Positions 29,773 to 50,448 of a stretch of DNA of 64,000 bases are shown here, piece after piece (positions within the stretch are counted from its first letter, which is position 1; every line of letters starts with the position of its first letter). The stretch is from Chromobacterium violaceum ATCC 12472 (GTDB taxonomy: Bacteria; Pseudomonadota; Gammaproteobacteria; Burkholderiales; Chromobacteriaceae). Both the position numbers and the translations under genes were made by a program. The stretch is from NCBI RefSeq assembly GCF_000007705.1, contig NC_005085.1:1435752-1499751 (forward strand), read 5' to 3'. The notes beneath the pieces are model-generated. The model saw only the letters and a program-made list of their open reading frames with translations, had not been told where the DNA came from and did not search any database.

Positions 29773-29863
29773 TTAGTGTGAGCCGTTCGCCTAAGTAATG
29801 TCACATATTGAAGCGCTTTTCCCTGGCTGCCAGTCTGAAGCGTCAGACCATCAGGAGAGACGC

Positions 29864-30190
29864 ATGGCCTTCCCCACCGCAGTCAACAGCCAGATCACCG
29901 ACGCCGTCACTCAGTCCAACGTCAAAGTGGTGGGAGAGGCGCCCGCCATGGCGATGGGTTCCATCTATCAGAGCCTGGCCCATTCCACCGGCATCCTGTT
30001 CGAGAACGCCGTTTCGGCCCAGCAGCAGCAAACCGCGTTGGCGCAGGCGGTGGCGAACATGGGCGTGATGCAGGTCTACAGCCTGGACACCATCGCTGCG
30101 GCGACAGCCGGCGCGAAGGTGTCCCAGGGCGGCGCCGGAGAGGATCTGTCCAGCTTGTTGGCGGCGCTGCGGAGCTTGCGCGGCCAATAG
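29864..30190 (+). CDS. rebB: RebB-family R-body protein
   Basis: This 108-residue protein matches RebB almost motif for motif at its start (MAFPTAVNSQITDAVTQSNV, then VVGEAPAMAMGSIYQ). A Gln/Ala-rich helix (NAVSAQQQQTALAQAVANMG) follows. R-bodies are coiled protein ribbons built of several RebB-like subunits; they unroll at low pH and can rupture membranes or deliver toxins. AGGAGAG precedes the ATG. Only one reb gene is here, with no RebA/RebD partners, and the two membrane proteins downstream are not known Reb proteins. Confidence 0.88.
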   Translation: MAFPTAVNSQITDAVTQSNVKVVGEAPAMAMGSIYQSLAHSTGILFENAVSAQQQQTALAQAVANMGVMQVYSLDTIAAATAGAKVSQGGAGEDLSSLLAALRSLRGQ

Positions 30191-32994: not shown

Positions 32995-33573
32995 ATGATC
33001 TGGAACTTCATCGCGGCCACCGCGCTGGTCACCCTGATGCCAGGGCCGTCGCTGCTGCTGATCGTCGGGGCTTCGATGCGGAGAGGGTGGCGCGCCGGCG
33101 CGGCTGTCACGCTGGGCGTGGTTCTGGCTGACGCCGTTCTGTTATTGGCGGTGCTGGGCGGGTTGGGGACGTTGGCGAGAGCGGCTCCTGTCGCGCTGTC
33201 ATGCTTGAAATGGCTGGGGGCGGCTTACTTGTTGTATCTGGGAGCGGCGCAGTGGCGCTCGGCGGGACTGGCGCCGGCAAGCGACGGGACCGGCGGTTTC
33301 CGCCGCGGACTGGCCACCACGCTGCTCAACCCCAAGATCATCGTTTTCCTGGCGCTGTATTTCCCGCAGTTCATCCGGCCGGGTGAGGATGCTGGGCGGC
33401 AGATGCTGCTGCTGGGACCGCTGTTCCTGCTGACGGTGCTGGCTGTGTTCCTGCTGTGCGCGGCCGCCGCGCGAGGATTGCGCGGCATCGCGTCGGGGAG
33501 GGGCGGCGTTTGGCTGGAGCGGGGCAGCGCTTGCTGCTTGATCGCCTGCGGCCTGTATTCCGCTGTCGGCTAG
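32995..33573 (+). CDS. LysE-family exporter
   Basis: This 192-residue membrane protein of the LysE/RhtB family has about six membrane segments. The N-terminal signature is ALVTLMPGPSLLLIVGASMRRGWRAG, and the mid-protein LLNPKIIVFLALYFPQF motif is conserved in RhtB proteins. It likely exports an amino acid or related compound. GAGGAGG precedes the ATG. Its end overlaps the convergent HAD gene by four bases. Confidence 0.88.
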   Translation: MIWNFIAATALVTLMPGPSLLLIVGASMRRGWRAGAAVTLGVVLADAVLLLAVLGGLGTLARAAPVALSCLKWLGAAYLLYLGAAQWRSAGLAPASDGTGGFRRGLATTLLNPKIIVFLALYFPQFIRPGEDAGRQMLLLGPLFLLTVLAVFLLCAAAARGLRGIASGRGGVWLERGSACCLIACGLYSAVG

Positions 33574-34286
33574 AGGCGGCGATTCGCATTCAGGACATGG
33601 CCAAGCCTTCCATTCAAGGATGCGGTGGCGGAGGCCCTTTCCAGCCATTGCCATAGTTCGGGGGAGTTGAAATCGGCGATGACCGAGTCGGCGCCGGCTT
33701 CGCGCAGCGCGACCTCGGGCAGCATGCCGGCGATGGCGAAGGTGCGCAGGCCGGCCTGCTTGGCCGCGCGGATGCCGGATGGAGAGTCTTCGAACGCGCA
33801 CGCGCGTTCGGCCCGCCCTCCCACTCGGGCGAGTCCGGCGAGATAGGGCAGCGGGTGAGGTTTGCCGTAAGCCAGCTCGTCGCCTATCACCAGCGCGTCC
33901 ACCCGGGAAGCCAGGCCCAGGCCGTCCAGCATCAGCTCGGCGTTGGCGCGCGGCGCGTTGGTGACGACGGCGACGGCCGCGCCTTTGGCCTGGGCCCAAT
34001 CGAACAGCCGCAGCGCGCCCGGGGTGGGGCGCAATTGGCCGACCGAGGCGCGGAACAGTTGCTCCTTGCGCTCGGCCAGCTCCCGGTGCCGCTCGGGAAT
34101 GCCCGGCAGCAGCGCGCGCATGATGGCTTCGTTGGTGGAGCCGTGGACATGCCGCAGATAGCCGTCATGGTCCAGTTCCCGGCCGTGCTCGGCCAGCAAC
34201 GCGCGGAAGGCGCGGAAATGCAGTTCGTCGGTATCGGTCAGGGTGCCGTCCAGATCGAACAGCAGGGTGAAATCGGCTTGGGGCAT
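33570..34286 (-). CDS. HAD-family hydrolase (beta-phosphoglucomutase-like), last gene of the cluster
   Basis: This 238-residue HAD enzyme has motif I FDLDGTLTDTD (nucleophile Asp about residue 11), motif II VVTNAPRAN, the conserved Lys in YGKPHPLPY and motif III FEDSPSGIRAA. The cap is the helical subclass I type of phosphosugar phosphatases and mutases. It is clearly paralogous to the HAD at 36406 (shared RHREL/RRLAERKEELFRA, TPGALALF and PLPYL blocks). It sits 78 bases beyond galM on the same strand. Likely substrates are sugar phosphates. Confidence 0.85.
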   Translation of the reverse strand: MPQADFTLLFDLDGTLTDTDELHFRAFRALLAEHGRELDHDGYLRHVHGSTNEAIMRALLPGIPERHRELAERKEQLFRASVGQLRPTPGALRLFDWAQAKGAAVAVVTNAPRANAELMLDGLGLASRVDALVIGDELAYGKPHPLPYLAGLARVGGRAERACAFEDSPSGIRAAKQAGLRTFAIAGMLPEVALREAGADSVIADFNSPELWQWLERASATASLNGRLGHVLNANRRL

Positions 34287-34364
34287 GGCGGAGAGTTGTG
34301 TTCGGGTTTCGCGCCCATGGTAGGCGGCTTGCCGCCGCCGGGCAAGCCGCCCGGCGGTTTGCGC

Positions 34365-35438
34365 TCAGCGGGGCGGGGCGATGCCCAAGCGGTAGATGGT
34401 GGTGCTGCGGTAAGGCTGCTCTGGCCGCAATACCGAGCTGGGGAAGTGGGGGACGTTGGGCGCGTTGGGAAAGTGCTGGGCTTCCAGGCAGAAGCCATCG
34501 GATTGCCGGTAGGCGCGTCCGGACGCGCCGTTGTAGCGACCGGTGAGCACGTTGCCGCTGTGCAGCTGGAGGCCGGGTTCGGTGGTGAGCACGTCCAGCA
34601 GGCGACCGCGGCTATCTTCCACCACGCGCGCGGCCAGCCGCGGGTAGGGCTCGGCGCCGTCGCGCGATAACGCGTAGCAATGGTCGTAGCCGCGTCCCAG
34701 CCGGATTTGCGGGTCGTCGGCCCGTATGTCCCGGCCCAGCGGCTTGGGTTCGCGGAAATCGAATACCGTACCCTGCACGCTGCGGATTTCGCCGGTGGGG
34801 ATCAGCGCTTCCGTCACCGGCAGGAAGTGGTCGGCCAAAATGGCCAGCCTGTGGTCCAGCGCGCTGCCGCTGCCTTCTCCCGCCAGGTTGAAATAGGCGT
34901 GGTTGGTGGTGTTGAACACGGTGGGGCGGTCGCAGCTGGCCTCGCAGCTGATCACCAGGTCGCCGGGCGGCTTCAGCGCGTAGCTGACGGTCAGGGTCAG
35001 CCGCCCGGGGAAGCCCTGGTCGCCATCCGGGCTTTCCAGCCGCAACAGCACTTCTGGATGGTCGGGCGCATCGGCCACGGCGGCCACCTGCCACAGCCGG
35101 CGGTCGAAGCCTTCCGGCCCGCCGTGTATGGCGTGGCTGCCCTCGTTCAGGTCCACCTGGTGCCAGCGGCCGTCCAGCTGGAAGCGGCCGTTTTCTATCC
35201 GGTTGGCGTAGCGGCCCATGGTGGCGCCCAGGCGGCCGCCGGCCTGGCGGTAGTCGTCCAGCCGGGTGTAGCCCAGCACCACCGAGTCGAAGTGGCCGTG
35301 GCGGTCGGGGCTGCGCAGCGACTGCAAGGTGGCACCCCAGGCCAGGATGGCGGCGCTGACGCCGTTGCTCAGCGTCAGCTCCACTTTCTCGACGGTTTCG
35401 CCGCCTGGCAGGGTGCCGAATGCGGAACGGGTGATCAT
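34365..35438 (-). CDS. galM: galactose mutarotase (aldose 1-epimerase)
   Basis: This 357-residue enzyme interconverts alpha and beta anomers of aldoses. Family motifs are MGRYANRIENGRF, the catalytic His in NTTNHAYFNLAG and the Glu in GFCLEAQHFPNAPN. No signal peptide is present, so it is cytosolic. The ATG at 35438 overlaps the preceding gene's stop by four bases, so it is translationally coupled to the binding-fold protein and the HAD. Inside this operon it points to a free sugar as substrate or product. Confidence 0.9.
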   Translation of the reverse strand: MITRSAFGTLPGGETVEKVELTLSNGVSAAILAWGATLQSLRSPDRHGHFDSVVLGYTRLDDYRQAGGRLGATMGRYANRIENGRFQLDGRWHQVDLNEGSHAIHGGPEGFDRRLWQVAAVADAPDHPEVLLRLESPDGDQGFPGRLTLTVSYALKPPGDLVISCEASCDRPTVFNTTNHAYFNLAGEGSGSALDHRLAILADHFLPVTEALIPTGEIRSVQGTVFDFREPKPLGRDIRADDPQIRLGRGYDHCYALSRDGAEPYPRLAARVVEDSRGRLLDVLTTEPGLQLHSGNVLTGRYNGASGRAYRQSDGFCLEAQHFPNAPNVPHFPSSVLRPEQPYRSTTIYRLGIAPPR

Positions 35439-36409
35439 GGGGTTTTCTCCGGTTTGGGCGCGCGCGCGGCGCGCAGCCGCATCAGCGCGTCGAAGCGTTG
35501 CAGGACGGCGGGCCGCTCGCGGCTGGCCCGCTCCGGATTGATGGGGAACAAGGCCGGCTCGCGTTCGCCGCGCAGCAAGAGCTTGGCGTGGTGGCGGAAC
35601 AGGTCGGCGGCCTCTTCGGACATCACCCAGTCCAGCGCCCGGCGCGCCAGCGCCTGCTGGCGGCTGCCGGCCAAAATGCCGTAGACCTCGGCCTCCGCGC
35701 CTATCGCATCCTGCGGCAGCGCCTGGACCAGCGCAGGGTTGTCGCTCAGCCGGCGCCGCGCCGCTACGCGCACGGTGACGCCCAGCGCCGCGCCGCCATC
35801 GCCGACGCGCGCGGCCGGTTCCCAGGCCGAGCCGGGGTAGTCGATCACGTTGCGGTCTATCTCCACCATCAGGCGCCAGCCGTCTTCCGGCCCGTAATAC
35901 TGGAGGATGGTGGTCAGCGCCAGGTAGCCGGCGCCGGAGCGGCGCGGGTCGGGGAACAGCAGGGATTGGCGGAGCGTCGGCGAGGCCAGATCGGACCAGC
36001 GTGCAGGAAGGACCGCGCCGCGCGCCTGCAACAGGGCGGGGTCGGCGACGAAGGCGAGGGAAAAGCCGGTGGGCCGGCAGAAGCCGTCGGCGTCGCAGCC
36101 GCCGCCTGGGGCCGGCGGCGCGATCCGGGTGGCGATGCCGGGGCTTTGCGCGGCGGTGTCGGCCCAGCCCAGCACCAGGTCGCCCTCCGGACCGGACAGC
36201 AGAAAGGCGGTCAGGCTGGAGGTGGGCATTCTCCACACGGTGATGGCGACATCGGGCATCAGCCGGCTCAGCGCTTCCAGATAGTCGGCCAGTTCGTAGG
36301 GTTCGAAGGCGCTGTAGGCGATCAGATGGCCGCCTGCGCCGCTGCCGGTGGCGGCCTCGATGCGGACCGCGTCGGCGGGCAGGCCGGGGGGAGGCGCGGA
36401 CGGGCTCAT
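35435..36409 (-). CDS. periplasmic-binding-fold protein (AfuA/Fe3+-SBP-like) lacking a signal peptide
   Basis: This 324-residue protein resembles type II ABC solute-binding proteins of the Fe(III)/phosphonate group (AYSAFEPYELADYLEALSR, WSDLASPTLRQSLLFPDPRRSGAGYLAL, EEAADLF). It starts MSPSAPPPGLPADAVRIE, with no signal peptide or lipobox, and no ABC permease or ATPase is nearby. It overlaps both neighbours by four bases. A cytosolic binding or enzymatic role within the pathway is more likely than transport. A longer 5' reading would run into the HAD gene. Confidence 0.7.
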   Translation of the reverse strand: MSPSAPPPGLPADAVRIEAATGSGAGGHLIAYSAFEPYELADYLEALSRLMPDVAITVWRMPTSSLTAFLLSGPEGDLVLGWADTAAQSPGIATRIAPPAPGGGCDADGFCRPTGFSLAFVADPALLQARGAVLPARWSDLASPTLRQSLLFPDPRRSGAGYLALTTILQYYGPEDGWRLMVEIDRNVIDYPGSAWEPAARVGDGGAALGVTVRVAARRRLSDNPALVQALPQDAIGAEAEVYGILAGSRQQALARRALDWVMSEEAADLFRHHAKLLLRGEREPALFPINPERASRERPAVLQRFDALMRLRAARAPKPEKTP

Positions 36410-37098
36410 GCTCCGGACTCCTCGGCCGCGGCGCTCAATTCCAGCGCATCCAGCCGCCGCCACAGCTCGGCGGCGGTGAAGTCGGCGATCACTTCGTCGG
36501 CGCCGGCGCCGCGCAGCGATTCGGCAGGCAGCGCGGCGCCGACGCCGAAGGTGTGGATGCCGGCGGCGCTGGCCGCTCGCACGCCGGACAGCGAGTCCTC
36601 GAAGGCCAGCGCGCGCTCGGGGCGGCCGTTCAGCCGCTGCAGGCCGGTCAGGTAGGGCAGCGGATCCGGCTTGCCGCGCGGCAGCTCCTCGCCTATCACC
36701 AGCGCGTCTATCCGTCCCAGCAGATCCAGTCCGGCCAGCATGCGCTCGGCGTTGGTGCGCGGCGCGTTGGTCACCACCGCGATCGGCACCCGGCGCGCCT
36801 CCGCCCATTCGAACAGCGCCAGCGCGCCGGGCGTCGGCTCCAGCTTGCCGATGGCGGCGCGGAACAGTTCTTCCTTGCGTTCGGCCAGGCGGCGGTGCGA
36901 GTCCTTGGACAGGTCGGGAAACAGTTCGCGCATGATCGCGTCGTTGGGCGCGCCCATGATGCGTTCCTTGTAGATCTGCATGGTGATGCTGCGTTTATGG
37001 TCGGCCAGCAAGGTCTGGTAGGCGCCGAAATGCAGGATGTCGGTGTCCACCAGCGTGCCGTCCAGGTCGAACAGCAGGGAAAAATCGGCTTGGCTCAT
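36406..37098 (-). CDS. HAD-family hydrolase (beta-phosphoglucomutase-like), second copy
   Basis: This 230-residue protein carries motif I FDLDGTLVDTD, motif II VVTNAPRTN, Lys in RGKPDPLPY and motif III FEDSLSGVRAA. It is a paralogue of the HAD at 33570. The ATG at 37098 has AAGGAGAAC upstream. It follows the MFS gene by 26 bases, and its stop overlaps the next start (ATGA). It probably dephosphorylates a sugar or cyclitol phosphate of this pathway, as NtdB does in kanosamine synthesis. Confidence 0.85.
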   Translation of the reverse strand: MSQADFSLLFDLDGTLVDTDILHFGAYQTLLADHKRSITMQIYKERIMGAPNDAIMRELFPDLSKDSHRRLAERKEELFRAAIGKLEPTPGALALFEWAEARRVPIAVVTNAPRTNAERMLAGLDLLGRIDALVIGEELPRGKPDPLPYLTGLQRLNGRPERALAFEDSLSGVRAASAAGIHTFGVGAALPAESLRGAGADEVIADFTAAELWRRLDALELSAAAEESGA

Positions 37099-37124
37099 CG
37101 TTGTTCTCCTTGTTTGCGCAAGTC

Positions 37125-38303
37125 TCAGGCCTTGTGCGGCAGCGCGTGGCGTTGCCCAGCGGCCAGGCAGGCCGCCGCCATCAGCAGCGGCAGGACGACA
37201 AGCATGCCGATCGCATTGACGAGGCCCGCCATTTGGCCGATATAGCCCAATACGATGGGGACCACCAACAGGGAAATGCCGACGGCCTGGGTGGCGCCCA
37301 CGGAAATCAGGCCGACATGGCCGGGTTCGAGCCGGATCGCGTTGCTGATCAACAGCGGGAAGAAATTGCCCAGGCACATGCCGGCCAGCGCCAGCGCGGC
37401 GATGGTGACGGCGGGCAGGGCGCTGGCCCAAAGGCCGAGGATGGCGACGCCGCCCAGCAGAATGACCGCCATCAGCATGTTGCGGCCGTCGAAGCGCGCC
37501 AGCAGCCGGCTGGAAACGAGGCGTCCGAACACGGTGCCGCCGAAGAAGACCGACATCAGGCTGACCGCCTGGGCGGGCCCCAGGCCCAGCCGGCTTTCCA
37601 GGAACTGGGCGCCCCAGAAGCCTATGCCCCATTCCGCGCCTATGCCCAGCAGCACCGAGATCCAGCACAGCGCCACCGCCAGCGGCACGCCGCCGCGCGC
37701 GGCGCTTCGGGTTTCATCCGCCTGTTCCGGCCGGCCGGCAGGGGCCGGCAGCGGCAGGATCAACGCCAACGCCAGCGCCGCCGCCAGCAGCGTCCAGCGC
37801 CAAGGCAGGCCCAAGGCGGCCAGCTGGCCGACCAGCAGCGGGCCGGAGAACACGCCGGCGCCGGCGAAGATGAAGGCCTCCACCATCGCCATGTCGCGGT
37901 GCTCGGTCTGGTGCCAGGCCAGGGCGGCCTGCACCGCGGACTGGAGCACGCCGCCGGTCAGTCCCATGGCGATCGCCGCGGCCAGGGTGCCGGCGAAACC
38001 GCGCGCCTGCGTGATGGACAGCACGGCCAGCACCATGGCCACGGCCGCGCCGCGCACCAGCGGACCCAGGCCCAGCCTGGGCAGCAGCCAGCCGCCCAGC
38101 AGGCCGGACGCGACCAGGCCGCCGGCATAGCTGGTAAAGTGCCAGCCGACCTCGATGGGGTCGTAGCCGAACTCGGCGCGCAGGAAGGGCAGGGTGGAAC
38201 CCAGCACCGACTGCTGAAAACCGAATACCGCCAGCACCAGGTACAGGAACCAGGTGGGGCCGTCGCGGCGGAAGGGCCGGGGGGCGCGGATGCTGTCTGT
38301 CAT
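37125..38303 (-). CDS. MFS transporter
   Basis: This 392-residue permease of the major facilitator superfamily has twelve predicted membrane segments and a central cytoplasmic loop (about 190-210). The LGLG-rich loop between segments 2 and 3 is the expected position for motif A, though degenerate. It resembles FucP/YfkF-type and drug-type MFS proteins. It heads the second half of the cluster (MFS-HAD-SBP-galM-HAD), after a 183-base gap from nudK. It could export the product or import a sugar precursor. Confidence 0.85.
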   Translation of the reverse strand: MTDSIRAPRPFRRDGPTWFLYLVLAVFGFQQSVLGSTLPFLRAEFGYDPIEVGWHFTSYAGGLVASGLLGGWLLPRLGLGPLVRGAAVAMVLAVLSITQARGFAGTLAAAIAMGLTGGVLQSAVQAALAWHQTEHRDMAMVEAFIFAGAGVFSGPLLVGQLAALGLPWRWTLLAAALALALILPLPAPAGRPEQADETRSAARGGVPLAVALCWISVLLGIGAEWGIGFWGAQFLESRLGLGPAQAVSLMSVFFGGTVFGRLVSSRLLARFDGRNMLMAVILLGGVAILGLWASALPAVTIAALALAGMCLGNFFPLLISNAIRLEPGHVGLISVGATQAVGISLLVVPIVLGYIGQMAGLVNAIGMLVVLPLLMAAACLAAGQRHALPHKA

Positions 38304-38447
38304 CGCGGTTCCTTCTGTGTCGAATGGGGCGGCTTGTCGGGCCGCGCCTTGTCAGGTGGAGGGGCTGCGCCGATTCCGCTGCCGGCGGCTGCCGGGTGTT
38401 TTGTGGTCTGCGGCTCTGGGCGACCGGAGGTTTTGAGAGGGGCATCC

Positions 38448-38467
38448 GCGCCGGCTGAAGCCGGCGC
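38448..38467. terminator. strong hairpin after nudK, without T tract
   Basis: GCGCCGGCT-GA-AGCCGGCGC is a perfect 9-base stem, 20 bases past the nudK stop. No T run follows on either strand. It may attenuate transcription into the MFS gene or protect the upstream message. Confidence 0.45.
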
Positions 38468-38486
38468 AGCCTGGCAGCCGGACGCG

Positions 38487-39083
38487 CTAGTCCAGCAGCC
38501 GGTGCAGTTGCGCGTACTGCAGCAGCATGATGGTCTTGCCGTCGGCGATGTCGCCGCAGTCCACCATCGCCAGCGCCTGCTGCAGCGGCAGCTCCAGCAC
38601 CTCCAGCTCCTCGCCGTCCGCCGCTACGCCGCCGCCGTCGCCCACCTTGTCGCGGGCGTGGTATTCGCCGACGAAGAAGAACAGCTTTTCGGTGACCGAT
38701 CCCGGGCTCATGAAGGCCTCGAATATCTTGCGCACATTGTCTATCCGGTAGCCGGTCTCCTCCTCGGTTTCGCGGCGGATGCAGGTTTCCGCGTCGTCCT
38801 GGTCGAGCAGGCCGGCGCAAGCTTCGATCAACATGCCGTCGTGTCCGTTGACGAAGGCTGGAAAGCGGAACTGGCGGGTGAGGATCACCGAGCGGCGCGC
38901 GCGGTTGTACAGCAGGATCACCGCGCCGTTGCCGCGGTCGTAGGTTTCGCGCGACAGCGTCTGCCAGCTGCCGTCGCGGCGCCGGTAGTCGAAAGTGGTC
39001 TTGCGCAGCACGTACCAGTCATCGGACAACACTTCCACTTTCTGGATGCGCACCCGTTCCCGAGTGGCGGCGACATCGCTCAT
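38487..39083 (-). CDS. nudK: NUDIX hydrolase, NudK (GDP-mannose hydrolase)-like
   Basis: This 198-residue protein aligns by eye along its length with E. coli NudK (YDRGNGAVILLYN, RQFRFPAFVNGHDGMLIEACAGLLD, EVLELPLQQALAM, DGKTIMLLQYAQL). The NUDIX box is GLLDQDDAETCIRRETEEETGY, with REtEEEtG complete. NudK splits GDP-mannose or related NDP-sugars into sugar-1-phosphate and NMP. Its start overlaps the stop of the MTA-phosphorylase-like gene (ATGA). In this setting it may process a nucleotide-activated sugar. Confidence 0.82.
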   Translation of the reverse strand: MSDVAATRERVRIQKVEVLSDDWYVLRKTTFDYRRRDGSWQTLSRETYDRGNGAVILLYNRARRSVILTRQFRFPAFVNGHDGMLIEACAGLLDQDDAETCIRRETEEETGYRIDNVRKIFEAFMSPGSVTEKLFFFVGEYHARDKVGDGGGVAADGEELEVLELPLQQALAMVDCGDIADGKTIMLLQYAQLHRLLD

Positions 39084-39988
39084 GAATTTTCCTTTTGCTT
39101 GTTCATCAATCGGTTGGCGTTTGGCGCCACGGTCAACAGTTTCGCGAGCATGGCCGGATCGCGTTGTTCCGGCGCGGTCATGATCGCGGTGTCCAGCGCG
39201 CGGTCGCAGCCGCAGCGGCAGGCGCCGGCGTGGCGTCCCAGGCGTTGCACCGCTTCTTCCACCAGGCGGCGCGCGCTGTCGCCGACTTCGGCCATCCGCT
39301 CCGCCACCAGCGCGGCATTGACCGGTTCCTGCGATTCGAACCAGCAGTCGTAATCGGTGGGGATGGCCACCAGCGCGTAGCACAGCTCGGCTTCGCGGGC
39401 GAGCTTGGCTTCCGGCATTGCGGTCATGCCTATCACGGTGCCTCCCCACTGGCGATAGAGCAGGGATTCGGCGCGGGTGGAGAATTGCGGACCTTCCATC
39501 ACCACGTAGGTGCCGCCGTCGCGGGCCGGCACGCCCGTTGCGCCGACGCTGTCGGCCAGCGTTTCGCGCATCCGTCCGCAGACCGGGTCGCCGAAAGGCA
39601 CGTGGCCGACCAGGCCGGGACCGAAGAAGGTCTTGTCCCGCATCAGCGTGCGGTCGATGAACTGGTCGACCAACACGAAGCGGCCGGGGGGCACATCCTC
39701 GCGCAGGCTGCCCACCGCGCTCAGCGACAGGATCTGGGTGCAGCCGACGCGGCGCAGCGCGGCGATGTTGGCCCTGGCGTTGATGGAGGCGGGCGGGATG
39801 GTATGGCCGGGGCCGTGCCGCTGCAGGAAAGCGACCGGCACGCCGCCGAGATAGCCGGTGGTCACCGGCGACGACGGCGCGCCGAAGGCGGTGGCGCAAT
39901 GGTGGACGCGGGAGTCGGTCAGGCCCAGCAGGCGCTGGAAACCGCTGCCGCCTATGATGCCGATGCGGGCCGGATGGGATTCAGTCAT
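39080..39988 (-). CDS. mtnP: S-methyl-5'-thioadenosine phosphorylase-type nucleoside phosphorylase
   Basis: This 302-residue enzyme belongs to PNP/MTAP family 2: IGIIGGSGFQ (phosphate loop), RHGPGHTIPPASINARANI, MEGPQFSTRAES, GMTAMPEAKLAREAE and ATDYDCW-like TDYDCW. It splits methylthioadenosine or a purine nucleoside with phosphate. The C-terminal CRCGCDRALDTAI segment with three Cys is seen in many bacterial members. It overlaps the desaturase end by eight bases and the nudK start by four. It may be a housekeeping gene caught in the operon or a dedicated pathway step. Confidence 0.85.
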   Translation of the reverse strand: MTESHPARIGIIGGSGFQRLLGLTDSRVHHCATAFGAPSSPVTTGYLGGVPVAFLQRHGPGHTIPPASINARANIAALRRVGCTQILSLSAVGSLREDVPPGRFVLVDQFIDRTLMRDKTFFGPGLVGHVPFGDPVCGRMRETLADSVGATGVPARDGGTYVVMEGPQFSTRAESLLYRQWGGTVIGMTAMPEAKLAREAELCYALVAIPTDYDCWFESQEPVNAALVAERMAEVGDSARRLVEEAVQRLGRHAGACRCGCDRALDTAIMTAPEQRDPAMLAKLLTVAPNANRLMNKQKENS

Positions 39989-41090
39989 GGTGGCTTCCTT
40001 GGGTGGAGAGGCGGCCGGACAAGGGCTGTGCGACCAGCCGCTCGCGCAGCTCGGACAGCGCCGACGGCGCGTTGCCGCGGCGGAACAGCAGGCCCTCGCT
40101 GGCATGCTCGGTGTAGCGCGGGTCGTGAATCTTCAGATGGCGATCTATCGCCGGCAGGTAGTTCCAGCGCACGCCCGGGTACAGCGAGTGGACGAGGTGG
40201 TAGGCGTCCGAGGTGGGGGCGATGAACACCCGCACCAGCCAGCCGGCGACGCCGAAATAATCGGTGGGACGGCCCATCAGGTACTCCAGCTCCAGCCGCT
40301 CCAGCGGGAAGCCGGGCATGAACCAGCGGTGCTCGGCCAGCAGCGATACCCAGGCGAACACCGGGTAGGAAGTGAGCAGCGGCAGCAGCCAGCCGAAAAC
40401 CACGCCTGCCCAGCCGCCGACCCAGTACAGCAGCGCGCCGGTGGCCAGCAGCGTCGCGCAGCGGGCGAACGCCGTCGCGCGCGAGTGGTTGAGCATGCTG
40501 TTTCGGGCCATGGTGGCGAGATTGTTCCAGAAGCCTGCCGGGCTCAACGGGTAAAACAGCCGGGAGAGGAAGGAGAGATCGGACAGCCCGGCCGCGTAGC
40601 CGCCGGCGAACACCCGGGCGCGGTTGGGGTCCAGCTCCGGGTGGTTGGGCTTGCGGTGATGGTCGCCGTGGGTCTTGTGGCGGCTGTGCATGTCGCGCTT
40701 GAACACCGGGAACTGGTAGAAAATATCGCTCAGCCACCATTGCCAGGCATGGGACGGGCACAGCGCGAAGTGGACGGCGTTGTGGCCGAACTCCTGCAGC
40801 GCGCGCATGCGGCCGCCGCTCCACAGCACCACTAGCATCCAGCCCAGCACGGAGTCGGCCAGCGCGGCCGCCATCACCGCGGCGACGATGTCCAGCCAGG
40901 TCCAGACGAAGGGCAGCGGCGCCAGCCAGCCGTCCAGCGGGCGGTAATAGGTTTCCGGATTGTCGTCGATGCGCGGCAGCAGCCTGAGCCTGCGCATCAC
41001 CGGTCCGCTGTCGCGGTAATAGAAGTAGACGACGCCGCGCATCGTCAGCGAGGCGGCCAGTACCGCCAGCAGCGGATAGAGGGTATGCAT
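39981..41090 (-). CDS. fatty-acid-desaturase-like membrane di-iron enzyme
   Basis: This 369-residue membrane protein has three His clusters of the desaturase/hydroxylase superfamily: HNAVH (about 104-108), HKTHGDHH (about 138-145) and HLVHSLYPGVRW (about 299-310). It has four or more membrane segments. It would use O2 and two irons to desaturate or hydroxylate a lipid or lipid-like substrate. Its ATG shares one base with the preceding HAD stop (TGATG). Its place in an aminosugar-type operon suggests a modified acyl chain or a lipidated product. Confidence 0.83.
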   Translation of the reverse strand: MHTLYPLLAVLAASLTMRGVVYFYYRDSGPVMRRLRLLPRIDDNPETYYRPLDGWLAPLPFVWTWLDIVAAVMAAALADSVLGWMLVVLWSGGRMRALQEFGHNAVHFALCPSHAWQWWLSDIFYQFPVFKRDMHSRHKTHGDHHRKPNHPELDPNRARVFAGGYAAGLSDLSFLSRLFYPLSPAGFWNNLATMARNSMLNHSRATAFARCATLLATGALLYWVGGWAGVVFGWLLPLLTSYPVFAWVSLLAEHRWFMPGFPLERLELEYLMGRPTDYFGVAGWLVRVFIAPTSDAYHLVHSLYPGVRWNYLPAIDRHLKIHDPRYTEHASEGLLFRRGNAPSALSELRERLVAQPLSGRLSTQGSHHD

Positions 41091-41761
41091 CAGGGTTCTC
41101 CCGCGGCGGCCAGGGCCGGCAGCAATTGCGACAGGCTGGCGCAGACGGGCGCGTCGCCTTCATCCAGCCGCTTCCGGTCCTGGTGGCCGGTTTCCACCAG
41201 CAGCGCGCGCCAGCCTACCTGGCGCGCCACTTCGCAGTCGTGCAGCGTGTCGCCGATGAACAGCGTGTCTTCCGGCGGCAGGCTTAGCCGGCATTGCAGT
41301 TCCCGCGCTTCCTCCAGCTTTCCCGAGGCGTGGGTGTGGCCCAGTCCGACCACGTGCTGGAAGCGGTCAAGCAGGCGCTTGGCTTCCAGCGTGCGCACCA
41401 GCACGTCGCGCTGGGACGCCGACAACACCGAGACGGCGATGCCGCGCGCGGCGGCGAGTTCCAGCAGTTCGTGCACGCCGTCGTGAATCGGACAGCGCGC
41501 GACATGGGCGTCGAAGTGCTCCAGATAGACGGCGACGATGTCGGCGAATGGGTGGCGGTTGAAGTCGAAGCCCAGCCGGGAATAGAAGCCGGCGATCGGA
41601 AAGCCGAATTCGCGCCGGTAGCGCTCGCGCGTGACCGGTTCCGCGTCGAAGCGCGCGCAGCAGCGGTTTACCGAGGCCACCGCCAGATCGATGTCGTCTA
41701 TCAGGGTGCCGTTCCAGTCGAATACCAGGTGGCGGACACCTGCCAGCCAGGCCGCGCTCAT
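41090..41761 (-). CDS. HAD-family phosphatase (Gph-like)
   Basis: This 223-residue protein has motif I FDWNGTLIDD (nucleophile Asp about residue 15), motif II VSVLSASQ, Lys in HASGKLEEA and motif III FIGDTLHDCEVA. It is closer to phosphoglycolate-type phosphatases than to the two beta-PGM-like HADs of the cluster. It overlaps the flavoprotein stop by four bases and the desaturase start by one. It is the third HAD in the operon and may act on a different phosphorylated intermediate. Confidence 0.85.
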   Translation of the reverse strand: MSAAWLAGVRHLVFDWNGTLIDDIDLAVASVNRCCARFDAEPVTRERYRREFGFPIAGFYSRLGFDFNRHPFADIVAVYLEHFDAHVARCPIHDGVHELLELAAARGIAVSVLSASQRDVLVRTLEAKRLLDRFQHVVGLGHTHASGKLEEARELQCRLSLPPEDTLFIGDTLHDCEVARQVGWRALLVETGHQDRKRLDEGDAPVCASLSQLLPALAAAGEP

Positions 41762-43116
41762 GTTCGCGCCTCTCCGGGCAGCAGCGAGCCGAGCACGATG
41801 CGCGCGGCGATCGGCGGCGCGTACAGCCGGGACGGATTGACGATCAGGTTGCTGACGCCGATCTGCGCCTCCAGCGCGCCGCGGTGATAGGCGGACAGCC
41901 GGGTCAGGCCGGCGCCGTACCAGTGCAGGAAGCGGGTGCGCCAGCCTCGTTCGCCTTCGGTTTCCGGGAAGCGCAGATCCTCGGTGACCGCCATCTGCCA
42001 GGCCGGATCCAGCGCGCGGCACAGCTTTTCCTGCAGTTCCTGGCAACGCAATCCGCCGGCGAGCAGCGCGTCCAGATTCTCGTCCAGGCATTCGGCCTCC
42101 AGCGCGCACAGCGTCATGCCCTGGCTGTACAGCGGGTTCATGCTGGCCAAGGCGTCGCCGACCACCAGCAGGCCGTCCGGCCAGCGCGGCAGTCGGTCGT
42201 AATGGCGGCGCAGGCTGCCCGGCATGCGGAACACCGACACGTCGGACAGCGGTTCGGCATCCCGTATCACTTGGTGGATGTCCGGCATCGGCAGCGCGGC
42301 TAGCGCTTTGAGGAAGGCGTTCGGATCGCGGTCAGGGTAATGGCCGAACCAGCCTCCGGTGGTCACCATCCAGCGGTCGCCCTCTATCGGACTGATCACG
42401 CCCATCGCCCGTTGATGGGGAGGCGTGGCCAGCACCAGCAGCACTTTCCACTGGTTGGCGAACTCGGGCCGGCGCCGGTAGATGCGCGAAGCGTAGCCGA
42501 GGTCGGTCTTGACCATGCTCTTGTCCACCGCGCCGAGGCCGGCGGTTTCCAGCCAGCCGGGCAGGCGGGTGCCGCGGCCGCTGGCGTCCACCAGCGCGTC
42601 GGCGTCCAGCGTCCAGGCATGGTCGTCGTTGCGCAGCCGGACGCCGCCGACCGCCAGCCTGTCGCCGTCTCGGCGGAAGTCCAGGCCTTCCATCTGGGTG
42701 CGCGACAGCACCGTCACCTGCGGCAGCCGCGCGACGCGGCGGCGCAGATGGGTGTCGATCAGCCGGCGGCTGCAGTAGTGGGCGTGGATGCCGCAGCGAT
42801 AACGGTTTTTCCAGCGGCCGGCCTGGTACCACTTGACGTCGTGGCCCAGGTCGGCCACCAGCGCGCCGGCCTGCTCCAGTTCGGACAGGAAGCCAGGGAA
42901 GATGGCTTCCATGATGTCCTTGCCGCGCTGCAGCAGCAGGTGGACGTGGTGTTCCTGCGGCACGCTCTGGCGCGCGCCGGTTTCGTTGTGGAAGTCGCTT
43001 TTTTCCACGATGGTCACGCGCGGATAGCGGCGGGCCAGCACGGCCGCCGCCAGGCAGCCGGCGACGCTGCCGCCCAGCACCACCGCGTGGGCGTTTTCAG
43101 TTGGGGACGTAGTCAT
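41758..43116 (-). CDS. FAD-dependent monooxygenase/oxidoreductase
   Basis: This 452-residue flavoprotein has an N-terminal dinucleotide motif (AVVLGGSVAGCLAAAVLARRY, GxGxxG-like GGSVAG) and a second FAD motif, GLLVVGDALASMNPLYSQGM (GD motif), around residue 310. The HHVHLLLQRGKDIMEAIFPG segment is typical of the halogenase/hydroxylase-like group. The lysine dyad of tryptophan halogenases is not evident. It probably hydroxylates or oxidises a pathway intermediate. Its start overlaps the aminotransferase end by 20 bases. Confidence 0.83.
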   Translation of the reverse strand: MTTSPTENAHAVVLGGSVAGCLAAAVLARRYPRVTIVEKSDFHNETGARQSVPQEHHVHLLLQRGKDIMEAIFPGFLSELEQAGALVADLGHDVKWYQAGRWKNRYRCGIHAHYCSRRLIDTHLRRRVARLPQVTVLSRTQMEGLDFRRDGDRLAVGGVRLRNDDHAWTLDADALVDASGRGTRLPGWLETAGLGAVDKSMVKTDLGYASRIYRRRPEFANQWKVLLVLATPPHQRAMGVISPIEGDRWMVTTGGWFGHYPDRDPNAFLKALAALPMPDIHQVIRDAEPLSDVSVFRMPGSLRRHYDRLPRWPDGLLVVGDALASMNPLYSQGMTLCALEAECLDENLDALLAGGLRCQELQEKLCRALDPAWQMAVTEDLRFPETEGERGWRTRFLHWYGAGLTRLSAYHRGALEAQIGVSNLIVNPSRLYAPPIAARIVLGSLLPGEART

Positions 43117-44200
43117 TCAATGTCCTCGCGATGTAGTCGAGGTCCGCGTTGCCCAGGTCCGGGTGCAGCGGCACCGTGGTCAGCGAGCGCAGCAGCCGGG
43201 CGGCGTTGGGGCACTCCCGGCGGTAGCGCGCCAGCAGCGGCAGCTGGTACAGCGGCTGGTTGTCGTACTTGCCGATGTCGGACGGGATGCCGCGCGCCAT
43301 CTGGTAGCGCACCAGTTGCCGGCCGTCATGGCCGACCGCCTGCAGCAGCAGCGCATAGCCGTTGGCTTGGCCATGCTCGGGCAGCGGCAATTCGCGCAGC
43401 GCCGGGTTGCCCAGCGCGGCCAGCAGCCGCTCGCGGTTGCTCAGACGGATATCCAAGTGCCGCGCCAACTGCCGGCTGCGCGCCAGGCCCAGCGCCGCTT
43501 GCAGGCCGCCCAGCTTCAGGTTGATGCCCACGCTCCGGCCGGTGAGGTTGCCGAAGCGGGTGTAGGCGCGGATGCGCTCGGCTCGCTCCGGATCGGCGGT
43601 CATGACGAAGCCGCCCTCGCCGGTGGACATGAATTTGCAGTCGTGGGTGCTGAAGCAGCAGATCTCGCCGATGCGCGCCAGCCAGTCGCCGTTCAGCCGG
43701 GTCATGTGGCAGTGGGCCAGATCCTGGATCAGCGGAATGCCGCGCGCGCGCAGCAAGGCCCAGGTCCGGTCCGAGGGGACGGGATAGCCCCACATCGGCA
43801 CTTCGATCGCCGCGCGGGTGCGCGGTCCAAGGCAGCGTTGCAGGTCGTCCGGGTCCAGGCCGAAGCTGTCGGGCGCCGTGTCGCAGAACACCGGCACCAG
43901 GCCCTGCGCCAGAATGGGCAGCACGGTGCAGATCGGGCAGGTGGGCGCGAGCACCACTTCGTCGCCGGGGGAGAAGTCGATGCCGGCCAGCGCGGCGTGG
44001 ACCGAGGCGGCGCCGGAGGAAACGGCGATCACGTGCGGGAAACCGTACAGGCTTCCCAGCGCCGCTTCGTATTCCGCGACGACGTCGGCGGTGCCGGACA
44101 GGCCGCCGCGCAGCGCGCGGGCGAGTTCGGCGGCATCGTCCGGCGTGTCGTGGGCGCAGGTTTCGGCGATGTGGCGTGTTTCAAGCGCGATCGTGCTCAT
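43097..44200 (-). CDS. DegT/DnrJ/EryC1/StrS aminotransferase, copy 1
   Basis: This 367-residue PLP enzyme belongs to the sugar aminotransferase family. The internal aldimine lysine is Lys189 in STHDCKFMSTGEGG, and AVSSGAASVHAAL forms the phosphate cup. In place of the family's usual TFxAT stretch it has PTCPICTV, also seen in copy 2. It would transaminate a keto-sugar or keto-cyclitol. ATG 44200 is preferred over 44203 because GGAG lies 7 bases upstream. It is paralogous to the gene at 44712, separated by a NUDIX gene. Confidence 0.88.
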   Translation of the reverse strand: MSTIALETRHIAETCAHDTPDDAAELARALRGGLSGTADVVAEYEAALGSLYGFPHVIAVSSGAASVHAALAGIDFSPGDEVVLAPTCPICTVLPILAQGLVPVFCDTAPDSFGLDPDDLQRCLGPRTRAAIEVPMWGYPVPSDRTWALLRARGIPLIQDLAHCHMTRLNGDWLARIGEICCFSTHDCKFMSTGEGGFVMTADPERAERIRAYTRFGNLTGRSVGINLKLGGLQAALGLARSRQLARHLDIRLSNRERLLAALGNPALRELPLPEHGQANGYALLLQAVGHDGRQLVRYQMARGIPSDIGKYDNQPLYQLPLLARYRRECPNAARLLRSLTTVPLHPDLGNADLDYIARTLNDYVPN

Positions 44201-44715
44201 CATCGGACTCCCTGCTGCACCGCCTGCCATACCGCCTGGTCGTCGTACAGGCCCTCCAGCATGCGGCGGAAATTGGCGAACATCGGCAACGCGTCCAGCC
44301 GTTCGCGCGGGAAGAAGCCGACTTCCACGGCTTCGCGGCCTGGTGGACAGCGCCGTTCCGGCGTCGCGCACAGGTAGATCAGGTCCAGGTGGTAGTGCGG
44401 GGTCTTGGGATCGGCGATGTACTCGCACAGCACCCGGTACGGGCGGTGCAGCGCGGAGACATCGGCCTCTTCATCCTCCAGCGCGAGATCCCGTTCGCCA
44501 AGCAGCCGAGCGTGGATCCCGGTTTCCTCGCGCACTTCGCGCAGCGCCGCCTCATCCGGCGTTTCGTGCCGTTCGACGTGGCCGCCGGGGTACAGCCAGA
44601 CGCCGAGCTTGCGGTGCCGCAGCAGCAGCACCTCATGGTGGGGGTTGAGCACGAAGGCGGAAGCGGTGAAGTGCCGTTCCAACCCGGCGCGCTGCATCGC
44701 GCGGTCGGTGATCAT
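44200..44715 (-). CDS. NUDIX hydrolase
   Basis: This 171-residue protein has a NUDIX box GGHVERHETPDEAALREVREETG (residues 44-66, REVREETG intact). Upstream is LLLRHRKLGVWLYPGGH and downstream an aromatic-rich substrate region. It is not closely related to the NudK-like gene in the same cluster. It overlaps both DegT genes by a few bases, so its expression is tied to theirs. The likely substrate is a nucleotide sugar or other nucleoside diphosphate derivative. Confidence 0.85.
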   Translation of the reverse strand: MITDRAMQRAGLERHFTASAFVLNPHHEVLLLRHRKLGVWLYPGGHVERHETPDEAALREVREETGIHARLLGERDLALEDEEADVSALHRPYRVLCEYIADPKTPHYHLDLIYLCATPERRCPPGREAVEVGFFPRERLDALPMFANFRRMLEGLYDDQAVWQAVQQGVR

Positions 44716-45827
44716 GGCGCCTGGTACCCGTTGATGACGTCCGCCATGTAGTCCAACTCTTCCTCGCCCAGCGCCGGGTGTACCGGCAGCGTGGTCATGC
44801 CGGAGAGCAGCGCTTCGGCATTCGGGCAGTCGCGGCGGTACTGCTCCAGCGCCGGGAAGCGGTACAGCGCCTGGCAGCCGTAGCGCTTGATGTCGGATGG
44901 AATGCCGCGCGCGTCCAGGTAGTCGATGAAGGCGCGGTTGTCGGCGAACCCCAGTTCCAGGTTGAGAAAGTAGTAGTTGGGGTTGCCGCCTTCTATGATC
45001 CGCTTTTCCCGAACCTGGGGGTGGCGCAGCCGTTGCAGCAGATGGCGGGCATGGGTGCGCCGGCGGTCTATCTGCCCGGCGAGCTTGTCCAGCCGGCTGT
45101 GGCCCAGCGCCGCCGGCAGCGCGGCCAGCTTGTAGTTGAGGCCGAAGTCCGCGCCGTTGAGGTTGCCGAAGCGGCTGTAGGAGCGGCAGCGCTCGGCGAG
45201 CTCGGCGTCGTCGGTCAGCAGGAAGCCGCCCTCGCCGGTGGCCAGCGGCTTGCGCTCGTGGGTGCTGAAGCAGGACAGGTGGCCGTAGGACGACAGGTGC
45301 CGGCCGTGCAGCGTGCTGCCGTGCGAGTGGGCCAGGTCCAGAATCAGCTTCAAGTCCAGCGAGTCGGCCAGTCCCCGCAATTCGTCCACTTCAGTGGGGT
45401 AGCCCCACATCGGGATGTCGATCAGCGCCGAGGCTCGGGGGGTGACGCGTTCCCTCACCGAGTCCGGATCGGCGCCGAAACCGTGTTCGCGGGTGTCCAC
45501 AAACACGGGATTGGCGCCGGCGGCGATGATGGGGTAGACCGTGCACAGCGGGCAGCTGGGCGTCAGCAACACGTCATCGCCGGGCTGCACGCCGGCGGCG
45601 AACAGCGCCACGCTCACGGCCGCGCCGCCGGAAGACACGGCGATGGCCTCGGCGGCGCCGAACCAGGCGGCCAGCGCTTGCTCGTAGGCGACGACGGTGT
45701 CGCTGGTGCCGGACAGCGCGCCGCGCAGCGCCCGCTCCAGCGCGGGGAGATCGTCCGGGTATTGCGGACGGTATTTGTCGGAGATCACGCGGCCGGCGGT
45801 CTGGGCCGCGGCGATGGTTGCGGTCAT
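44712..45827 (-). CDS. DegT/DnrJ/EryC1/StrS aminotransferase, copy 2
   Basis: This 371-residue PLP enzyme has aldimine Lys193 in STHERKPLATGEGG, AVSSGGAAVSVAL as the phosphate cup and PSCPLCTV in the position matching copy 1. It aligns along its length with copy 1 at roughly 40-50 percent identity by eye (shared PMWGYP, RFGNLNG, RGIPSDI, YRxxCPNA). Two copies may aminate two positions or form a heterodimer. It starts 17 bases after the dehydrogenase and overlaps the NUDIX gene. Confidence 0.88.
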   Translation of the reverse strand: MTATIAAAQTAGRVISDKYRPQYPDDLPALERALRGALSGTSDTVVAYEQALAAWFGAAEAIAVSSGGAAVSVALFAAGVQPGDDVLLTPSCPLCTVYPIIAAGANPVFVDTREHGFGADPDSVRERVTPRASALIDIPMWGYPTEVDELRGLADSLDLKLILDLAHSHGSTLHGRHLSSYGHLSCFSTHERKPLATGEGGFLLTDDAELAERCRSYSRFGNLNGADFGLNYKLAALPAALGHSRLDKLAGQIDRRRTHARHLLQRLRHPQVREKRIIEGGNPNYYFLNLELGFADNRAFIDYLDARGIPSDIKRYGCQALYRFPALEQYRRDCPNAEALLSGMTTLPVHPALGEEELDYMADVINGYQAP

Positions 45828-45844
45828 GGAGGACTCCCGTTCGG

Positions 45845-46897
45845 TTACAGCGACAGAGATTCGATGCCGGTGCGTATCCGGCTATGGGCGTTTTGCAGGC
45901 CCTGGGCCACGGCGTCGGCCGAGCAGATTTCCTCGATCACGCGGTAGGTGGGCAGCAGGCTGGCGAAGTCCGCCTCGAAGCGGCGGTGCTCGCGTATCGC
46001 CTGGAAGAACTGGTGCAACTCGCCGTGGTAGCCGCTGCGCTCGTAGCCGGAGTCCAGCGGCCCAGGCTGCCAGGCGCCGCGCCAGCGCTTGGCCGCGCCG
46101 GTGGGGCGGGTCGCGTGTTCGGGTTCGTGCAGCGTGATGTTCCACAGGTTGTCGAGCTCCACCAGCGTGGAGCTGGAACTGACCAGCTTCATGTCGAACT
46201 CGAAATAAGGGAAGCTGGTTCCGGCCAGCAGACTGGCGGTGGCGCCGGATGAGAAGGCCATGTCTGCCTTGACGATCAGCGCGTCGTCGTGGCGCTGCAC
46301 GCTGGATTGCACGCGGCGCAGCTCGCCGTCGCCGAAGGTGATGGCCAGGTCTATCGTGTGGATGGCCTGCGCCAGCAGGAAGGAGCGCAGCGTGGAGTCC
46401 AGCCCCCACAGCGGGGCGCGCGGTTTGTTGGCGTAGTGGTTGAGCTGGATGTGCAGGGTCTCGCCGAATTCGTCCACCTGGGTCATCTCGCGCAGTTGGC
46501 GCACCGGGCGGGCGAACTTGAAGTTCATGCCCACGCCGGATACCACGTCGCTGCGGCGCGCGGCATCGATCAGCGTTTCCAGCTCCTCCAGCGTCGCGCA
46601 CGGCGGTTTTTCGACGAACACGTTGACGCCCTTGCTCATCGCCAGCAGCCCCATTTCGAAGTGCAGCTGCGGCGGGCCCGCCATCACCACCGCGTCCAGC
46701 GGGACCTGGTTCAGCATGGCCGGCACGTTGTCGAGCACCGGGATGTCGGAAATGAAGCGGTGGACGCGCCGCGCCCGTTCCAGATCGCTGTCGCACGCGG
46801 CGACGATCCGTATGTCCTGCATCTGCAGAAGAGACGGCAGCAGGTTTTCCTGCATCTGCGCGCCGATGCCGACAAGGCCAACCTTGATCAAGCTCAT
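45845..46897 (-). CDS. Gfo/Idh/MocA-family dehydrogenase, first gene of the cluster
   Basis: This 350-residue oxidoreductase has an N-terminal Rossmann fold (KVGLVGIGAQMQENLLPSL), the family EKPP motif in VNVFVEKPPCATLEE (catalytic Lys), and a C-terminal GFO/IDH alpha/beta domain. Members oxidise sugar or inositol hydroxyls, for example NtdC on glucose-6-phosphate C3. Paired with DegT aminotransferases and HAD phosphatases, it would supply the keto-sugar to be aminated. It is the promoter-proximal gene, preceded by a 433-base spacer. Confidence 0.87.
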   Translation of the reverse strand: MSLIKVGLVGIGAQMQENLLPSLLQMQDIRIVAACDSDLERARRVHRFISDIPVLDNVPAMLNQVPLDAVVMAGPPQLHFEMGLLAMSKGVNVFVEKPPCATLEELETLIDAARRSDVVSGVGMNFKFARPVRQLREMTQVDEFGETLHIQLNHYANKPRAPLWGLDSTLRSFLLAQAIHTIDLAITFGDGELRRVQSSVQRHDDALIVKADMAFSSGATASLLAGTSFPYFEFDMKLVSSSSTLVELDNLWNITLHEPEHATRPTGAAKRWRGAWQPGPLDSGYERSGYHGELHQFFQAIREHRRFEADFASLLPTYRVIEEICSADAVAQGLQNAHSRIRTGIESLSL

Positions 46898-50240: not shown

Positions 50241-50434
50241 GATAGGTGCCTTTTACAAAACGAAATATTCGCAATTACTGGGTCCGATGCCCTGCGCCTT
50301 TGTCGTTGGAAACAGGCCATCGGGAGAAAGCTGTTCTGACCGGTGCGATCCCGAGCGGTGGACGCTTAGCCGGTTGACTTGCCGCTCATCGTAAGTGCTT
50401 TGTAGTTTGGAAGGTACACATTTAAGAACATCAG

Positions 50435-50448
50435 TTGATTCTAATCAA
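50435..50448. promoter_or_regulatory. FNR/ANR-type box upstream of sdaC
   Basis: TTGAT-TCTA-ATCAA is a perfect match to the TTGATNNNNATCAA consensus of FNR regulators. It lies about 195 bases upstream of sdaC. Confidence 0.75.

What the first reader, a model, noticed from the sequence alone, without database searches (positions are those of the whole stretch)
33570..46897. Compact 14-gene block with aminosugar/aminocyclitol logic, no recognised counterpart
Seen: a Gfo/Idh/MocA dehydrogenase, two DegT-family aminotransferases, two NUDIX hydrolases, three HAD phosphatases, a flavoprotein, a desaturase-like di-iron enzyme, an MTA-phosphorylase-type enzyme, an MFS permease, a binding-fold protein and galM lie on one strand, most overlapping by 1-20 bases. 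Known: Bacillus NtdC (Gfo/Idh), NtdA (DegT) and NtdB (HAD) make kanosamine from glucose-6-phosphate. Inference: the block makes an amino-sugar or aminocyclitol, perhaps oxidised and carrying a modified acyl chain. No NRPS, PKS or glycosyltransferase is present, so standard cluster finders may miss it.
Basis: partly seen in the sequence, partly recalled or inferred. Interest (0 to 1): 0.8.

Follow-up and report, generated by a model that had tools for sequence, protein, structure and literature searches.

The report
Mobile amino-sugar gene cluster, puromycin-like core
A 13-gene cluster in a Chromobacterium genome, shared with distantly related bacteria, probably puts an amino group on the sugar of a nucleotide as puromycin producers do and then cuts off the adenine, so its unknown product would be an unusual amino-sugar.

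Summary
In detail: 14 intact minus-strand genes, 9 of 13 junctions overlapping. Corrections: the last gene (HAD, 33570-34286) is a resident neighbour, so the unit is 13 genes (34365-46897); the binding-fold protein lacks a signal peptide and resembles sugar-phosphate binders.

The unit is a mobile biosynthetic cluster: its di-iron gene is in 5 of 19 genomes of the genus, three have an empty site, and counterparts lie in Mycetohabitans, Pseudomonas, Paraburkholderia, Chitinivorax, Pantoea (plasmid) and Rhizobium. Partial versions and bare Gfo/Idh-DegT-NUDIX triads expose a core with the enzyme classes of puromycin (Pur10/Pur4/Pur7) and of the Photorhabdus 3'-aminoguanosine operon. The MTA-phosphorylase homologue keeps the adenine-site residues.

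Best reading: the ribose of an adenine nucleotide is oxidised and aminated, further oxidised by a MonCI/Lsd18-type flavoenzyme and a di-iron enzyme, freed from adenine by phosphorolysis, dephosphorylated and exported. Direct homology to Pur10/AdgB could not be tested, and no product is known. 'Amino-sugar' is supported; kanosamine/aminocyclitol and acyl chain are not. Nine literature searches listed no paper on it.

The parts
45845..46897 (-). g1: Gfo/Idh/MocA dehydrogenase, proposed nucleotide 3'-dehydrogenase; near-identical to PDB 3m2t
   Evidence: Pfam 75 bits; 3m2t 778.6 bits; EKP Lys97, His180, Asp183 invariant in 13 of 13 sequences
44712..45827 (-). g2: DegT-I aminotransferase, partner of g1
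   Evidence: Pfam 226 bits; catalytic Lys in FSTHERKPLATGEGG
44200..44715 (-). g3: NUDIX-A, proposed nucleotide pyrophosphohydrolase
   Evidence: Pfam 64.5 bits; NUDIX box; NUDIX near g1/g2 type genes in 18 of 19 related loci
43097..44203 (-). g4: DegT-II aminotransferase (second amination or partner step)
   Evidence: Pfam 180 bits; catalytic Lys kept; own group 98/90
41758..43116 (-). g5: flavin monooxygenase of the MonCI/Lsd18 family
   Evidence: PDB MonCI 206 bits, LasC/Lsd18 182 bits
41090..41761 (-). g6: HAD-A hydrolase; motif DWNGT (Asn where the usual second Asp sits)
   Evidence: Pfam 70.8 bits; motif in 14 of 14 orthologues listed and the window
39981..41090 (-). g7: membrane-type di-iron (FA_desaturase) enzyme
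   Evidence: Pfam 67 bits; eight invariant His in 11 sequences
39080..39988 (-). g8: MTA-phosphorylase-family adenine nucleoside phosphorylase
   Evidence: TIGR01694 291 bits, cut-off 275; RHG, SAVG, EGPQFST, IGMTAMPE, TD(Y/F)DCW conserved in 8 of 8 sequences
38487..39083 (-). g9: NUDIX-B, NudK/AdpP type
   Evidence: TIGR00052 154 bits, cut-off 79.6; NudK 232 bits, just under its cut-off of 234
37125..38303 (-). g10: MFS transporter, proposed exporter
   Evidence: Pfam 104 bits
36406..37098 (-). g11: HAD-B, beta-phosphoglucomutase-like sugar-phosphate HAD
   Evidence: TIGR02009 115 bits, below its cut-off of 153
35435..36409 (-). g12: solute-binding-protein fold without signal peptide, relative of sugar-phosphate binding proteins
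34365..35438 (-). g13: GalM-type aldose 1-epimerase; seen only in the Chromobacterium form
   Evidence: NF008277 308 bits, cut-off 240; no match in L018-L020; L022, L025, L026, L028 end too early to tell
33570..34286 (-). g14: HAD-C, resident gene at the insertion site, not part of the unit
   Evidence: present at empty sites; groups with resident HADs, 88/87

Best explanation
A horizontally acquired 13-gene biosynthetic cluster. Shown: the gene set, its recurrence, its presence/absence at one site, intact active-site residues. Inferred pathway: (1) g1 oxidises the 3'-OH of a purine nucleotide (most likely ATP); (2) g2 aminates the ketone; (3) NUDIX-A takes off pyrophosphate and HAD-A the last phosphate, giving a 3'-aminonucleoside, as in puromycin and ADG; (4) g4 adds or completes a second nitrogen step, and g5 (flavin) and g7 (di-iron) oxidise the sugar or its amine; (5) g8 phosphorolyses the N-glycosidic bond, releasing adenine and an amino-pentose 1-phosphate; (6) NUDIX-B, HAD-B, GalM and the sugar-phosphate-binding-type protein g12 handle the phosphorylated and free sugar; (7) g10 exports it. 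Adenosine would thus serve as a disposable scaffold. Steps 1-3 are the best supported; the order and sites of step 4 are guesses.
Against: No Pur10, Pur4, Pur7 or AdgB sequence could be reached, so homology to them beyond superfamily level is untested; profile searches gave, at high scores, only the window's own genome of 369 in the class and 2 of 392 genomes of one enterobacterial family (context not examined), and nothing recognisable as Photorhabdus adg. The phosphatases here are HAD; Pur3 is recalled as a different fold. NUDIX-A's best PDB matches do not fix its substrate. DegT-A's PDB relatives are nucleotide-sugar and inositol enzymes. No step explains why two DegT enzymes are needed. 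MTA phosphorylase could be salvage.
Confidence: 0.48

Rival explanations
1. NDP-hexose route: g1/g2 oxidise and aminate C3 of a UDP- or GDP-sugar (as RifL/RifK or WlbA/WlbE do, recalled), a NUDIX enzyme cleaves the nucleotide and HADs dephosphorylate; the phosphorylase acts on something else.
For: DegT-A's PDB relatives are nucleotide-sugar and inositol aminotransferases; NUDIX-B is NudK-like, a GDP-mannose pyrophosphatase type; GalM and sugar-phosphate-type g12 fit a hexose.
Against: It leaves an adenine-type nucleoside phosphorylase, present in every locus that has g7 and g9 (11 of 11), without a role; NUDIX-A's NCBIfam hits are mostly NTP or RNA pyrophosphohydrolase models, all weak.
Confidence: 0.22
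2. The product is an intact aminonucleoside antibiotic, and the phosphorylase, NUDIX-B and spare HADs are self-protection or salvage that destroy misrouted product inside the cell.
For: Clusters without the phosphorylase still carry exporters (L027, L029, L031); the Myxococcus cluster has a CCA/poly(A)-polymerase-like head domain gene, a possible shield against a 3'-amino ATP analogue; ADG itself is a nucleoside (PMC9239236).
Against: The phosphorylase gene lies mid-operon, overlapping its neighbours by 8 and 4 nt, and comes only together with the di-iron enzyme and NUDIX-B; GalM has no obvious use on a nucleoside.
Confidence: 0.2
3. One reading: kanosamine-like or aminocyclitol pathway from glucose-6-phosphate, perhaps acylated.
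For: Shared classes (Gfo/Idh, DegT, HAD) with NtdC/NtdA/NtdB (recalled).
Against: NtdA is a poor match (89 bits, behind 28 PDB sequences); NUDIX and nucleoside phosphorylase unexplained; no cyclase, acyl carrier or acyltransferase match.
Confidence: 0.06

Closest known systems
ADG operon adgA-E of Photorhabdus luminescens (3'-amino-3'-deoxyguanosine)
   Same: MFS pump and homologues of pur10, pur4, pur7 and pur3 in one small operon; Gram-negative host (PMC9239236, passages seen).
   Different: 5 genes; no second aminotransferase, flavoenzyme, di-iron enzyme, phosphorylase, NudK, binding-fold protein or GalM; sequences not compared.
Puromycin / A201A / cystocin nucleoside module (Pur10, Pur4, Pur7, Pur3)
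   Same: NAD-dependent ATP dehydrogenase, aminotransferase, NUDIX, monophosphatase (PMC11641026, passages seen).
   Different: Those clusters keep adenine and add an amino acid and methyl groups (partly recalled); here there is no ligase or methyltransferase match, and a phosphorylase is present.
Nucleoside-phosphorylase steps of fluorometabolite and nucleocidin pathways (FlB recalled; NucPNP from the start of an abstract in a search listing)
   Same: A purine nucleoside phosphorylase gene needed in a secondary pathway; release of the modified pentose is recalled for FlB.
   Different: No fluorinase or SAM chemistry here; the sugar is aminated.
NtdABC kanosamine pathway of Bacillus (recalled)
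   Same: Gfo/Idh + DegT + HAD.
   Different: No NUDIX, no phosphorylase; NtdA only a distant match.
PNP-1, PNP-2, PNP-3 of Pantoea (PMC7744662, passages seen; PMC4010436, term search with no occurrence)
   Same: Small conditional antibiotic clusters that most genome-mining tools tried there missed.
   Different: 7, 6 and 8 genes; none of the marker terms I searched for pointed to this gene set.

Membership tests
Puromycin/ADG-type 3'-aminonucleoside module | Gfo/Idh dehydrogenase, DegT aminotransferase and NUDIX hydrolase encoded side by side | tested here: met
   Window g1-g3; DegT in 19 of 19 and NUDIX in 18 of 19 related loci
Puromycin/ADG-type 3'-aminonucleoside module | Dehydrogenase orthologous to Pur10/AdgB | tested here: inconclusive
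Puromycin/ADG-type 3'-aminonucleoside module | Pur3-type monophosphatase | tested here: inconclusive
   Phosphatase genes are present but HAD; Pur3 sequence not available, its fold recalled only
Puromycin/ADG-type 3'-aminonucleoside module | Dehydrogenase acts on an NTP | not testable with these tools
   Needs enzyme assay
MTA phosphorylase family (g8) | Score above curated MTAP cut-off | tested here: met
   TIGR01694 291.2 bits, cut-off 274.85; narrower MTAP models not reached (for example 385.5 of 437, 294.3 of 453)
MTA phosphorylase family (g8) | Phosphate- and adenine-site residues | tested here: met
   RHG and TD(Y/F)D invariant in 8 of 8 sequences; site assignment recalled from human MTAP
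Guanitoxin GntB arginine hydroxylase (g7) | Score above NCBIfam cut-off | tested here: not met
   92 bits, cut-off 380
MonCI/Lsd18 epoxidase family (g5) | Sequence relation over most of the protein | tested here: met
   206 bits over residues 5-383 of 452; substrate untested
Ntd kanosamine pathway | DegT closest to NtdA | tested here: not met
   NtdA 89.4 bits, 29th of 93 PDB sequences
Periplasmic ABC-transporter binding protein (g12) | Signal peptide and partner ABC genes | tested here: not met
   No signal seen in 11 of 11 sequences by eye; no ABC gene among the 14

The most novel reading that the evidence does not exclude
A 'disposable adenosine' pathway: an adenine nucleotide is the scaffold on which ribose is aminated (perhaps twice) and oxidised, then adenine is discarded by phosphorolysis to give a free amino-pentose antibiotic. 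It would be spread by horizontal transfer through plant- and soil-associated bacteria, with nested simpler versions that still release nucleosides.
Probability: 0.33. Interest if true: 0.8.

Novelty: new variant of a known kind. Interest (0 to 1): 0.62.

Why it matters
Standard cluster finders key on NRPS, PKS, RiPP or similar genes, so this family has probably been overlooked although it occurs in well-studied genera. If the reading is right it adds a new way to make amino-sugars, puts a solved but functionless structure (3m2t) into a pathway, and gives a graded series of natural clusters (triad, +DegT-II, +flavoenzyme, full) in which each added step can be tested one at a time. 3'-Aminonucleosides and amino-pentoses are plausible antibiotic scaffolds against Gram-negatives.

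Tried and rejected
Structure of g7: model poor (mean pLDDT 60), not used. NUDIX-A substrate from PDB relatives: undecided. PDB sequence search for g7: no match at E up to 0.1. g7 in plasmids: 28 of 72,556 records, of which only four Mycetohabitans and one Pantoea cover 80% or more; the rest listed are partial, 32-37%. Rfam on the window: 0 matches at gathering score. tRNA scan: none. A link to Pantoea PNP-1/2/3: rejected on gene numbers and marker terms, without sequence comparison. PMC12648386 (review; passages only): no mention of puromycin or NUDIX. Literature: nine answered searches listed no paper on this cluster; the locus-tag numbers were estimated from position.

Of its 80 loci I examined 21 (L024-L044); L024 is the same contig as L016 and is counted once. 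Of 802 plasmid records matched by g1 (30 listed) I opened five (H1, H3, H5, H6, H8), chosen by me. L022, L025, L026 and L028 end inside their clusters, L013 inside g10.
Full report
What is there. The window lies in a 4,751,080-base single-contig genome, a size I recall as that of Chromobacterium violaceum ATCC 12472. g1 is essentially PDB 3m2t (778.6 bits), recalled as a structural-genomics entry from that species. Fourteen intact minus-strand genes run from 46897 down to 33570; 9 of 13 junctions overlap by 1-20 nt and the gaps are 17, 183, 26 and 78 nt. Families were confirmed by Pfam and NCBIfam.

Limits of the unit. The flanking serine dehydratase has an orthologue (91% identity or more) in 18 of 19 genomes of the genus; G011 has only a 52% paralogue. 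In G007, G017 and G015 the stretch from the LysR/DUF2000/LysE side up to and including a HAD gene is followed directly by the dehydratase (L128, L129, L131). In G008 about 4.4 kb of other DNA lies there, and in G009 a HAD also sits next to the dehydratase. The HAD of these five strains is 61-72% identical to window g14 and 54-63% to g11, and the tree groups it with g14 (88/87). So g14 is resident and the mobile unit is g1-g13, 34365-46897, with 69.0% G+C against 66.6% and 64.5% in the flanks. The di-iron gene g7 is in 5 of 19 genomes of the genus and 0 of 42 others in the family.

Conservation elsewhere. Tblastn of all 14 proteins was run on 31 loci other than the duplicate L024. Nineteen have a Gfo/Idh matching g1 at E below 1e-50 (31-97% identity). 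The last two have a different internal order. Four are partial: L017, L027 (Myxococcus vastator), L029 (Ensifer adhaerens ST2), L031 (Roseibium hamelinense). Three are Gfo/Idh-DegT-NUDIX triads: L021, L032 (Hamadaea), L033 (the archaeon Natrarchaeobius). One, L030, is cut by its contig end. DegT is present in 19 of 19 and NUDIX in 18 of 19. Of the other twelve loci (L023 and L034-L044, E from about 1e-33 to 1e-19; two on contigs of about 4 kb) only L023 and L043 have DegT beside the Gfo/Idh, and both have a NUDIX gene about 9 kb on. They may be cousins of the triad: a profile of these two Gfo/Idh proteins picks up members of the g1 clade at E down to about 1e-45. Close Gfo/Idh relatives were also listed from Pseudomonas cichorii, P. 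viridiflava, P. capsici, Burkholderia cenocepacia, Cystobacter, Dyella, Dickeya and Pectobacterium (no context seen). The family is sporadic: only the window's own of 369 genomes sampled across the class, and 2 of 392 in one enterobacterial family at E below 1e-100; 193 more of those 392 passed the 1e-18 limit with at most 95 bits and look generic.

How it most likely works. Puromycin is built by an NAD-dependent ATP dehydrogenase (Pur10), aminotransferase (Pur4), NUDIX hydrolase (Pur7) and monophosphatase (Pur3) (PMC11641026, passages). Photorhabdus adgB-E, homologous to pur10, pur4, pur7 and pur3, make 3'-amino-3'-deoxyguanosine in E. coli, with an MFS gene beside them (PMC9239236, passages). 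The same enzyme classes stand first here and are the only part shared by the loci. That the base here is adenine is inferred from g8. Phosphorolysis would release an amino-pentose 1-phosphate; HAD-B, GalM and a sugar-phosphate-type binding fold without signal peptide fit a free or phosphorylated sugar afterwards. The flavoenzyme and di-iron enzyme would act on the sugar or its amine; the flavoenzyme at least can act before base removal, because it also occurs in clusters without g8 (L027, L029). Sites and order are guesses.

What speaks against it. Pur10, Pur4, Pur7 and AdgB sequences could not be reached, so the parallel rests on enzyme classes and gene neighbourhood. Pur3 is recalled as a different phosphatase fold from HAD. 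DegT-A's PDB relatives are nucleotide-sugar and inositol enzymes, which leaves an NDP-sugar route open. NUDIX-A relatives do not decide. The second DegT is unexplained.

Amino-sugar logic stands; kanosamine/aminocyclitol and acyl chain do not.

Novelty. No paper on this cluster was listed in nine searches of an open-access library, which does not hold most subscription journals. I call it a new variant of the aminonucleoside-type cluster: a core of known logic inside a gene combination that I found in no described cluster.

Noticed in passing
L029:12154-14037 and L031:12177-14024; L022:12152-14253; L028:12152-14238: A DegT-like protein without the catalytic lysine is fused in one open frame to the active DegT-II in Ensifer and Roseibium, and is encoded just before it in Pantoea (4-nt overlap) and Rhizobium: a likely pseudo-enzyme partner.
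   Followed up: partly
L027:15518-16207: The Myxococcus vastator cluster holds a 229-aa protein with a CCA/poly(A)-polymerase head-domain match (45 bits over 33 residues), possibly protection against a 3'-amino ATP analogue.
   Followed up: no
L021:4176-18457: In Rhizobium sp. BT04 the Gfo/Idh-DegT-NUDIX triad lies next to RtcR, a Ro60-like protein and RtcB (RNA repair), and near a nucleotidyltransferase-domain protein. Neighbourhood may be chance.
   Followed up: no
L033:5760-11044: An archaeon (Natrarchaeobius) carries the same Gfo/Idh-DegT-NUDIX triad with an MFS gene nearby.
   Followed up: no
L032:12175-13626 and L023:8838-9854: An aminoglycoside-phosphotransferase-type (APH) match follows the Hamadaea triad, and a phosphotransferase gene precedes the Gfo/Idh in Kitasatospora.
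   Followed up: no
window 41090-41761: HAD-A has DWNGT in the first HAD motif in 14 of 14 orthologues listed; the usual second Asp (general acid) is Asn.
   Followed up: partly
window 29798-30190: A RebB 'killing trait' (R-body type) protein, 95.7 bits.
   Followed up: no
window 28038-29624: An alpha/beta hydrolase fused to an acyl-CoA-binding-protein domain.
   Followed up: no
window 48942-50240: A 432-aa ORF with strongly coding-like base composition but no Pfam match at E 0.001.
   Followed up: no
window 50001-52000: Local G+C drop to 54.7% around and upstream of a formate/nitrite transporter and a pyruvate-formate-lyase gene.
   Followed up: no
L019:13964-15432 and L020:13669-15143: Both Mycetohabitans clusters opened have a PadR regulator and a siderophore-interacting-type (flavin reductase-like) protein just upstream, a possible electron donor for the oxygenases.
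   Followed up: no
L130:2563-6956 (G008), between the HAD and the serine dehydratase: The same insertion site holds about 4.4 kb of different DNA in another genome of the genus: a possible integration hot spot.
   Followed up: no
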